The notes under the pieces: model-generated
Database searches by the model: none
What the model saw: the letters and a program-made list of their open reading frames with translations, nothing else
Told to the model about the DNA's origin: nothing
Shown here: positions 39,251 to 41,398 of the stretch, in pieces
Numbering within the stretch: the stretch's first letter is position 1
Layout: every line of letters begins with the position of its first letter
From: Alphaproteobacteria bacterium
GTDB lineage: Bacteria; Pseudomonadota; Alphaproteobacteria; CAAGCB01; CAG-977
Assembly (NCBI GenBank): GCA_024407875.1
Contig: JAKSVT010000015.1
Location: forward strand, 1 to 54,146
Reading direction: 5' to 3'
DNA length: 54,146 nucleotides
Program-made: the position numbers and the translations under genes

Positions 39251-39277
39251 TTGACTTATGCCTGGGGGGGGTATGAT
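39251..39277 (+). promoter_or_regulatory. Probable flagellin promoter with a G8 tract in its spacer
   Basis: TTGACT (39251-39256) and TATGAT (39272-39277) are separated by only 15 nt, the last eight of which are guanines (39264-39271). TTGACT is also the -35 read for the pgm and ada genes. Predicted transcription starts near 39284. Sigma-28 or sigma-54 use cannot be excluded but no consensus for either was seen. Confidence 0.55.
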
Positions 39278-39284
39278 AGAAATT

Positions 39285-39305
39285 GGAACAAGAAATTTAT
39301 GTTCC
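39285..39305 (+). promoter_or_regulatory. Leader hairpin at the predicted 5' end of the flagellin mRNA
   Basis: GGAACA (39285-39290) pairs perfectly with TGTTCC (39300-39305) around a nine-base loop. A C5 run follows at 39304-39308. Such leader stems stabilise flagellin messages in some alphaproteobacteria or are bound by FlbT; which applies here is unknown. Confidence 0.4.
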
Positions 39306-39355
39306 CCCTGAAGGCAGTATGCCATGGGAAATTTACTTATAGAAGGAGACGGAAT

Positions 39356-41398
39356 ATGTCTAATAATAAGATTGCTTTAACAAGCTCTATGCGTTCAAAT
39401 TTGTTGAGCTTAAAAAACACCCAAGCTTTGTTTGATTCTACACAAAATAAGTTATCTACAGGATATAAAGTAAATAGCGCTATGGATAATCCATCTAGCT
39501 ACTTTACAGCACAATCTTTAAATGCTCGTGCAGACGACTTAAATACATTGTTGGACTCAATTGGCCAAGCAGTTTCTACATTGGAAGTTGCTGACCAAGG
39601 TATCACATCATTGCAAGACTTAGTATCTCAAGCTAAATCTATTGCTAATAACGCTCGTGATACAGCAAACGTTTCTGCAAGTGTTACATCTACAATCAAA
39701 TTTAACACAGATGCATTGAAAGCACAAAAAGTAACAGACGCTGTAAAAAATGCTAAAGTTGGCGATACAATGACAATTCGTATTGGAGACTCAACATCTA
39801 TTACAGGCAAGACAAACGTTCAAGAAGATACTAAATTATCAGGCATCAATATGGAAGATGATAACATGGGATCTTTAGTTGTTGATGGTAAAGAGTATAC
39901 TCTTAATACTAAAGCAGCTGAAGACTCAATGACAGCATCTTTTATTGGTGCAGAAACACCTGCGTCATTTACAGTTACTAGTGGAACAATTGTTGTAAAT
40001 TCAGATCTATCTGCAGTTTCAGTAGCTGAAAATGCAACAACAGAACCTTCTGGACTTTTAAAATTAACAGCAGAAACAGCTGCCCCTACAGCACCAACTG
40101 ATGGAGATGAAGTTATCTACAAAGGTGCTGATGGAAAATTTGCTAAGGCAACGTGGAATGACACAGATAGCAAATGGAAGAATGGTTCAGATGATGTAAC
40201 TGCGCTTATTACTGATGGTAATACATATGCTTCAACAACTGCAACATCAGGTACAGATTATCAATTTGCAGCTCACTCAGATAATACTACAGTATTCACA
40301 GCAAAAGATGCTAATACTTTAGTTGATGGTGATGGTAATGAATATGCATATAGTGCAGGATCATTAACAGCAGGACAATCATATAAAGCTACAGATGCAT
40401 CCATGAATGTTTCTAGTGATGGTAAAACTACAATTAGTGGTACATTCACTGATGCTGCAGGAGCAAAAGCTAATGCAAAAATGGGACCTGCAACAATCAA
40501 TGTAAAAGAAGGCTCCACAGTAGGCGACTTTGCCAAAGTTGTAGAAAATATGATTGGCTCAAATAAGATTGATGTTTCTGTTGAAGATTCAAACTTAACA
40601 ATCAAAACATTAGATACAACATCTGTTGAAGTTCGTGATGTGCTTGATGGTGCTGGACAATCAACAGGAAAAGGCATTGCTTCAGCTCTTCAAATGGATG
40701 ATGGAATTACAATTTCATTAGATGCAGATGATACAGCAGAATCATTACGTCAAAAGATTGAAAAAGAAATCCCAGGCGTATCTGCAGAAATCAACTCTGA
40801 TGGTAAAATGGTAATTAAATCATCTGAAGGTGATGACTTAGTAATTTCTGGTGATTTAGCTGAAAAATTGGGCGTTTCTGGTGCTGCTACAAACGGTAAC
40901 AATGAACGTGCTCAATATGCTGAACAATTTAACGGTGTTTTAAGCCAAATCGACCAATTAGTATCTGATACTTCTTATAAAGGTATCAACTTATTGAAGG
41001 GCGATAGCTTAACAGTTGTATTCAATGAATCACGTACATCAACATTAGAGTTGAAAGGTGTTACATTTGACTCAACAGGTTTAGGCTTAGTCGCTTCAAA
41101 AGGTGAATGGAAATTAACAGCTGATATTGATGAATCTTTAGATCAAATTACTAAAGCTACATCAATGTTGCGTGCACAAGCAAGTAACTTCGGTCAAAAC
41201 TTGTCAACAGTACAAATCCGTCAAGATTTTACTGAAAACATGATCAACGAATTGCAAACAGGTGCAGATAAGTTGACATTAGCTGACAACAACGAAGAAG
41301 CTGCTAACATGCTTGCTTTGCAAACAAGACAATCTTTGGCTACAAAGTCTTTGTCTCTTGCAAATCAATCAGCTCAAGCTGTTTTACAATTGTTCTAA
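39356..41398 (+). CDS. Flagellin (filament protein)
   Basis: 680 residues from the ATG at 39356, seven bases after AGAAGGAG; the frame is open further upstream to 39251 but lacks a start site. The conserved D0/D1 ends are clear: N-terminal LSTGYKVNSAMDNPSSYF and LNTLLDSIGQAVSTLEVADQ, C-terminal LRAQASNFGQNLSTVQIRQD and ALQTRQSLATKSLSLANQSA. The ~400 residues between form a Gly/Ser/Thr/Asp-rich surface-exposed domain with no cysteine. It builds the helical flagellar filament after type III export. It is a monocistronic gene with a strong ribosome site and a terminator, as expected for very high expression. The N-terminal region aligned with the TLR5-contact segment of enterobacterial flagellin lacks its Arg. 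Confidence 0.95.
   Translation: MSNNKIALTSSMRSNLLSLKNTQALFDSTQNKLSTGYKVNSAMDNPSSYFTAQSLNARADDLNTLLDSIGQAVSTLEVADQGITSLQDLVSQAKSIANNARDTANVSASVTSTIKFNTDALKAQKVTDAVKNAKVGDTMTIRIGDSTSITGKTNVQEDTKLSGINMEDDNMGSLVVDGKEYTLNTKAAEDSMTASFIGAETPASFTVTSGTIVVNSDLSAVSVAENATTEPSGLLKLTAETAAPTAPTDGDEVIYKGADGKFAKATWNDTDSKWKNGSDDVTALITDGNTYASTTATSGTDYQFAAHSDNTTVFTAKDANTLVDGDGNEYAYSAGSLTAGQSYKATDASMNVSSDGKTTISGTFTDAAGAKANAKMGPATINVKEGSTVGDFAKVVENMIGSNKIDVSVEDSNLTIKTLDTTSVEVRDVLDGAGQSTGKGIASALQMDDGITISLDADDTAESLRQKIEKEIPGVSAEINSDGKMVIKSSEGDDLVISGDLAEKLGVSGAATNGNNERAQYAEQFNGVLSQIDQLVSDTSYKGINLLKGDSLTVVFNESRTSTLELKGVTFDSTGLGLVASKGEWKLTADIDESLDQITKATSMLRAQASNFGQNLSTVQIRQDFTENMINELQTGADKLTLADNNEEAANMLALQTRQSLATKSLSLANQSAQAVLQLF

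What the first reader, a model, noticed from the sequence alone, without database searches (positions are those of the whole stretch)
39251..39277. G8 homopolymer in the spacer of the flagellin promoter: possible phase-variation switch
In an AT-rich genome eight consecutive G is very unusual. It lies exactly between TTGACT and TATGAT and makes the spacer 15 nt, whereas the other promoters read here (mipZ, aroK, fic, pgm, ada) have 16-17. Gain of one or two G by slipped-strand mispairing would bring the spacer to 16-17 and could switch flagellin from low to high expression. Intergenic homopolymers acting this way are known in other pathogens, e.g. phase-variable promoters of Neisseria and Haemophilus. 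The link to this gene is inference.
Basis: partly seen in the sequence, partly recalled or inferred. Interest (0 to 1): 0.72.

Follow-up and report, generated by a model that had tools for sequence, protein, structure and literature searches.

The report
Poly-G switch in a flagellin promoter
In an uncultured gut-type alphaproteobacterium, a run of eight Gs sits exactly between the two RNA-polymerase contact sites of a flagellin gene, and the only other two G-runs this long in the genome sit the same way before other genes, which points to genes that slip at random between weaker and stronger expression, as known from meningococcus and the syphilis spirochaete.

Summary
G8 (39264-39271) lies between TTGACT and TATGAT (spacer 15 nt), 78 nt before a flagellin ATG, and is the only G/C run above 5 in the window. 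G8 alone is only mildly unusual for the genome; its placement is the strong evidence. All three G>=8 tracts in the own 1.77-Mb genome sit in a TTGAC-N-TANNNT spacer; no such spacer with only G4-G7 was found there; the reversed-pattern control is zero. Two of three congeners repeat the arrangement before an orthologous flagellin (G10), pilins, Cys-rich secreted proteins, a lipoprotein-like protein and a glycosyltransferase. Nine related flagellin promoters without a G tract have 17-nt (eight) or 18-nt (one) spacers; both poly-G flagellin promoters have 15. A recent duplicate in a congener differs in its tract (G8AGGG versus G10) while the downstream flank is 178/180 identical.

Best explanation: transcriptional phase variation by spacer-length slippage, as at porA, fetA and tp0126, with the assembled allele predicted low. 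Other flagellin genes in the genome lack the tract, so the switch would change filament composition more than motility. Not shown: length variation within the species, a transcription start, or activity against tract length.

The parts
39251..39256 (+). -35 element TTGACT
   Evidence: sequence; same hexamer at the orthologous flagellin of G003/L035
39257..39263 (+). fixed part of the spacer, TATGCCT; nearly repeated at the C23 site (ATATGCCT) of the same genome
39264..39271 (+). G8 homopolymer, the putative slippage tract
39272..39277 (+). -10 element TATGAT, directly after the tract
   Evidence: TANNNT directly after the tract at the other promoter-type sites
39284..39355 (+). predicted 5' leader (start site inferred at about 7 nt after the -10); weak hairpins, not better than shuffles; ribosome site AAGGAGA before the ATG
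39356..41398 (+). flagellin gene, 680 aa
   Evidence: PF00669, PF07196, PF00700 over cut-off

Best explanation
The G8 tract is a contingency (phase-variation) element in a sigma-70-type promoter. During replication the tract gains or loses Gs by slipped-strand mispairing. Each change alters the distance and facing between the -35 (TTGACT) and -10 (TATGAT) elements, so RNA polymerase fires the flagellin gene strongly near a 17-nt spacer and weakly away from it. The assembled allele (G8, 15 nt) is predicted to be a low state and G9-G10 higher. Since other flagellin genes in the genome lack the tract, switching would alter which flagellin, with its own exposed middle domain, is present in the filament. 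Shown by sequence: the tract, its exact placement, its recurrence at other loci and in congeners, and the 17-nt norm of the orthologous promoter. Inferred: slippage in this species, the direction of the effect and the biological role.
For: All three G>=8 tracts of the genome are in TTGAC..TANNNT spacers, with no G4-G7 sites of this kind and zero reversed controls. Recurrence in congeners G001 and G003, mainly before envelope genes. Orthologous flagellin promoters without G tract: 17 nt at eight loci, 18 at one; own paralogue on C17 also 17; the two poly-G ones 15. Spacers at the genus poly-G sites range over 15, 17, 18, 19 and 20. Paralogue pair in G001: tract G8AGGG versus G10, downstream flank 178/180 identical. 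Repeated leaders in the sister genus carry C13-C15. Many coding G tracts in the family lie in autotransporter-, glycosyltransferase- and acyltransferase-like genes, the usual contingency-gene classes (partly by eye). Known precedent: porA and tp0126, optimum 17 nt (PMC7864442); fetA (PMC5320596).
Against: Five of the genus sites, including all three in G003, have the same 15-nt spacer, which a freely drifting tract would not predict. G8 is near the lower end of tracts that slip often, and MutS is present. No within-species length variation has been seen. For G003 a different -10 (TAAAAT, 20 nt) is possible. The antiporter and the 223-aa membrane protein are not typical surface antigens.
Confidence: 0.78

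Rival explanations
1. Fixed promoter class: the G tract and the short 15-nt spacing are a stable design, for example bridged by an activator or read by a regulator that binds G-rich DNA, and do not switch.
For: 15 nt at five genus sites with near-identical cores in G003 (TTGAC-W-TATGC-G10-TARANT); shared core sequences within each genome.
Against: Tract (G8-G12) and spacer (15-20) vary between sites of one genus; the paralogue pair differs only around the tract; one copy has an interrupted tract; flagellin promoters without tract keep 17 nt.
Confidence: 0.13
2. Translational switch: the tract lies in an extended reading frame (TTG 39251) in frame with flagellin, so slippage would shift the frame.
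For: The frame is open from 39251 into the gene.
Against: Flagellin has a conserved MSNNKIAL-type start with its own ribosome site; no reading frame covers the tract at the orthologous G003 site; the extension would translate the -35 and -10 elements.
Confidence: 0.03
3. Sequencing or assembly artefact (for example dark-cycle poly-G) or a chance tract without function.
For: All genomes here appear to be metagenome assemblies; one G001 tract is visibly broken in assembly (G9-NN-ACG-G16); G8 somewhere in the genome is not surprising by composition.
Against: Artefacts would not fall between TTGAC and TANNNT three times out of three; the placement recurs in independent MAGs; control patterns give zero.
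Confidence: 0.06

Closest known systems
porA promoter of Neisseria meningitidis (van der Ende et al. 1995, as cited in PMC2791445 and PMC7864442)
   Same: poly-G between -35 and -10; expression falls when the spacing is reduced from 17 nt
   Different: porin in a betaproteobacterial pathogen with measured length variants; here flagellin, and variation not observed
tp0126 (OmpW homologue) promoter of Treponema pallidum (PMC7864442)
   Same: poly-G between -35 and -10 with best transcription when the total spacing is 17 nt
   Different: spirochaete outer-membrane protein with reporter data; none here
fetA promoter of Neisseria gonorrhoeae (Carson et al. 2000, as described in PMC5320596)
   Same: homopolymer between -10 and -35 altering expression
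   Different: poly-C, C10-C14 between strains; siderophore receptor
fim2/fim3/fimX promoters of Bordetella pertussis (PMC1891110)
   Same: G/C homopolymer in the promoter region of a surface-filament gene whose length sets transcription
   Different: the C stretch belongs to a fim-box promoter element; spacer geometry not compared here
Bifidobacterium breve pilus G tracts (PMC9187656)
   Same: G-tract slippage controlling a surface filament in a gut commensal
   Different: the tract is inside the gene, not in the promoter spacer

Membership tests
promoter-spacer homopolymer phase variation (porA / tp0126 / fetA type) | G/C homopolymer exactly between -35 and -10 of a sigma-70-type promoter | tested here: met
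   TTGACT-TATGCCT-G8-TATGAT; same arrangement at all G>=8 tracts of the genome
promoter-spacer homopolymer phase variation (porA / tp0126 / fetA type) | Spacing passes through the functional optimum as the tract changes | tested here: inconclusive
   G8 gives 15; G-free orthologues have 17, so G10 would reach it; no other allele of this locus seen
promoter-spacer homopolymer phase variation (porA / tp0126 / fetA type) | Tract length varies between cells or strains of one species | not testable with these tools
   one genome per species; only a paralogue pair and different sites in congeners
promoter-spacer homopolymer phase variation (porA / tp0126 / fetA type) | Transcription depends on tract length | not testable with these tools
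   needs RNA or reporter data
promoter-spacer homopolymer phase variation (porA / tp0126 / fetA type) | Controls surface-exposed or secreted products | tested here: met
   flagellin; in congeners flagellin, pilin, glycosyltransferase, and Cys-rich proteins with signal-like N-termini; exceptions are the antiporter and the 223-aa membrane protein of the own genome
translational (in-frame) homopolymer phase variation | Tract inside the reading frame of the switched gene | tested here: not met
   tract ends 84 nt before the flagellin ATG; no frame over the tract at the G003 orthologue

The most novel reading that the evidence does not exclude
An uncultured gut alphaproteobacterial genus has a set of poly-G-spacer promoters, a transcriptional phasome: within each genome near-identical promoter cores with a G tract stand before unrelated, mostly envelope genes, so that each cell draws a random combination of flagellin, pilin and surface-protein levels. 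Flagellin make-up would be switched directly at its own promoter, which I did not find described in the papers searched.
Probability: 0.45. Interest if true: 0.65.

Novelty: new member of a known kind. Interest (0 to 1): 0.5.

Why it matters
Phase variation by promoter-spacer homopolymers is known mainly from human pathogens. Finding it as a recurrent device in an uncultured lineage related to herbivore-gut MAGs, acting on flagellin and pilin genes, would suggest that random surface switching also serves ordinary life in the gut, perhaps against immune recognition or phages (inference). It can be tested from metagenome reads, and it warns that a consensus MAG sequence shows only one state of such genes.

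Tried and rejected
Extended in-frame ORF (translational switch): rejected. Artefact or chance: judged unlikely on placement. Loss of mismatch repair as a booster of slippage: mutS found in all 12 family genomes. Structured 5' leader or known RNA element: fold no better than shuffles, no Rfam match. Genus-wide TTGAC-N-TATAAT spacing was uninformative in the AT-rich genomes (matches about equal to the reversed control); in G001 and G002, where background is lower, spacers are mostly 16-18. Class-level survey: 15 of 289 genomes have a site; about 15 sites lie outside the family against 9 control matches, so most of those may be background, though some look real. The two pilin copies in G001 are paralogues (87% over 659 bases), not strain alleles. 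The organism's name was not determined; the nearest named records are gut and rumen Alphaproteobacteria MAGs.

Full report
What is there. The window reads TTGACT-TATGCCT-GGGGGGGG-TATGAT at 39251-39277 on the + strand, 78 nt before the ATG (39356) of a 680-aa flagellin with an AAGGAGA ribosome site. The spacer is 15 nt. G8 is the only G or C run longer than 5 in the window. Length alone is not decisive: low-order Markov models expect about 0.1 to 1.8 such tracts in a genome of this size.

Placement is the strong evidence. The own genome (G000, 1.77 Mb) has seven G/C tracts of 7 or more. Four G7 tracts are in reading frames (two autotransporter-like genes, a Cys-rich protein, a yidD-like gene; identities by eye). 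The three tracts of 8 or more are all upstream of genes and all sit between TTGAC and TANNNT: the flagellin (G8, 15 nt, TATGAT), a potassium/proton antiporter (TTGACA-TTTTACT-G8-TATTCT, 15 nt) and a 223-aa membrane protein without family match (TTGACA-ATATGCCT-G10-TAATTT, 18 nt). The chance that a random place has both elements is 2e-4 to 1.3e-3. Relaxing the search to four Gs adds no further site in this genome, so the tracts are a separate class and not the end of a continuum.

Congeners. The pattern occurs in all four genus genomes with a reversed control of zero; the G002 site lies in a reading frame and is not counted. In G003 three sites share TTGAC-W-TATGC-G10-TARANT with 15 nt, before a flagellin, a pilin (PilS/Bundlin families) and a lipoprotein-like protein. 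In G001 sites precede a family-2 glycosyltransferase (G9, 17 nt), Cys-rich secreted-looking proteins (G12, 20 nt; an interrupted G6TG4, 19 nt; one tract broken in assembly) and two pilin paralogues with TTGAAA as -35 (G10, 18 nt; G8AGGG, 20 nt). Over 110 distinct sampled tracts of 8 or more in the family, TTGA[CA] upstream and TANNNT directly after are associated (p = 0.0008); the sample was not random, and one of the 11 double positives (L053) is inside an autotransporter-like frame and probably chance.

What the promoter looks like without the tract. Flagellin genes of related MAGs, found through the conserved N-terminus, have a sigma-70-type promoter about 80-115 nt before the ATG. At eight such loci the spacer is 17 nt and at one it is 18. 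At two of the eight (L175, L177) the script ranks another hexamer pair one match higher; I take the 17-nt pair because it lines up with the others. All nine carry TG one base before the -10. An own paralogue on contig C17 also has 17 nt; for the C5 paralogue no clear promoter was found. The two poly-G flagellin promoters, in this species and in G003 (the same locus as L170, a horse-faeces MAG), have 15; for G003 a 20-nt reading with TAAAAT is also possible. Two more Gs in the window allele would give the family norm.

Evidence for tract change. In one genome, G001, two pilin paralogues have 178 of 180 identical bases downstream but G8AGGG versus G10 in the tract. In the sister genus a repeated leader of Cys-rich secreted genes carries C13, C14 or C15 on the gene strand among six copies whose flanks are 77-93% identical. 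Both show that such tracts change length in this family over evolutionary time; neither shows switching within a population.

Mechanism. The best reading is phase variation by slipped-strand change of the spacer. This is the established mechanism of porA and tp0126, whose optimum is 17 nt (PMC7864442), and of fetA (PMC5320596). The present allele is predicted low and G9-G10 higher; the direction is inferred from the 17-nt norm and from general knowledge of sigma-70 promoters. The genome holds at least two other closely similar flagellin genes without a G tract (C5, C17), and the C17 protein matches the window flagellin closely at both ends but poorly in the middle (about residues 200-375), the part expected to face outward on a filament. 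So the expected phenotype is a change of filament composition.

Weak points. The uniform 15-nt spacing at five sites could mean a fixed design that needs an activator. G8 is short, and MutS is present. The genomes appear to be metagenome assemblies, in which homopolymer lengths are consensus values. No reads, RNA data or second strain could be examined.

Novelty. The mechanism is known; the lineage and the target (flagellin at its own promoter) are new to me, and seven searches of the open literature returned no description, which is not proof of absence. I file it as a new member of a known kind.

Noticed in passing
G000:C1:104291-104298 and G000:C23:49542-49551 (L242, L241): Two further poly-G spacer promoters in the same genome, before a potassium/proton antiporter and a 223-aa membrane protein without family match.
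   Followed up: yes
L056, L068, L132, L137, L140, L143 (genus g3, genome G005): A repeated leader with C13-C15 on the gene strand, about 110 nt before the start of Cys-rich genes with signal-like N-termini; block ATTTGTNACACTTTTNTTAAAAATATA just before the C tract. Whether the tract is in the spacer or at the transcription start is open.
   Followed up: partly
L248:1345-1579 (G002:C62): Four 36-37-nt repeats at 66-nt spacing with a cas2-like gene next to them: looks like a type II-C CRISPR array in which every repeat contains a full TTGACA-16-TATAAT promoter.
   Followed up: partly
upstream of flagellin genes in L171-L180: Family flagellin leaders share a GC-rich, hairpin-like 5' leader and a TG-extended -10 at a 17-nt spacer; possible post-transcriptional control site, not examined.
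   Followed up: no
L229, L231, L233, L237 (other Alphaproteobacteria): Isolated poly-G-spacer promoter-like sites in other families, three of the four before short genes with signal-like N-termini; not tested further.
   Followed up: partly
G000 C21:4667-4673, C44:3214-3220, C17:14699-14705 (L012, L017, L011): G7 tracts inside autotransporter-like and Cys-rich protein genes of the own genome, possible frameshift contingency sites.
   Followed up: no
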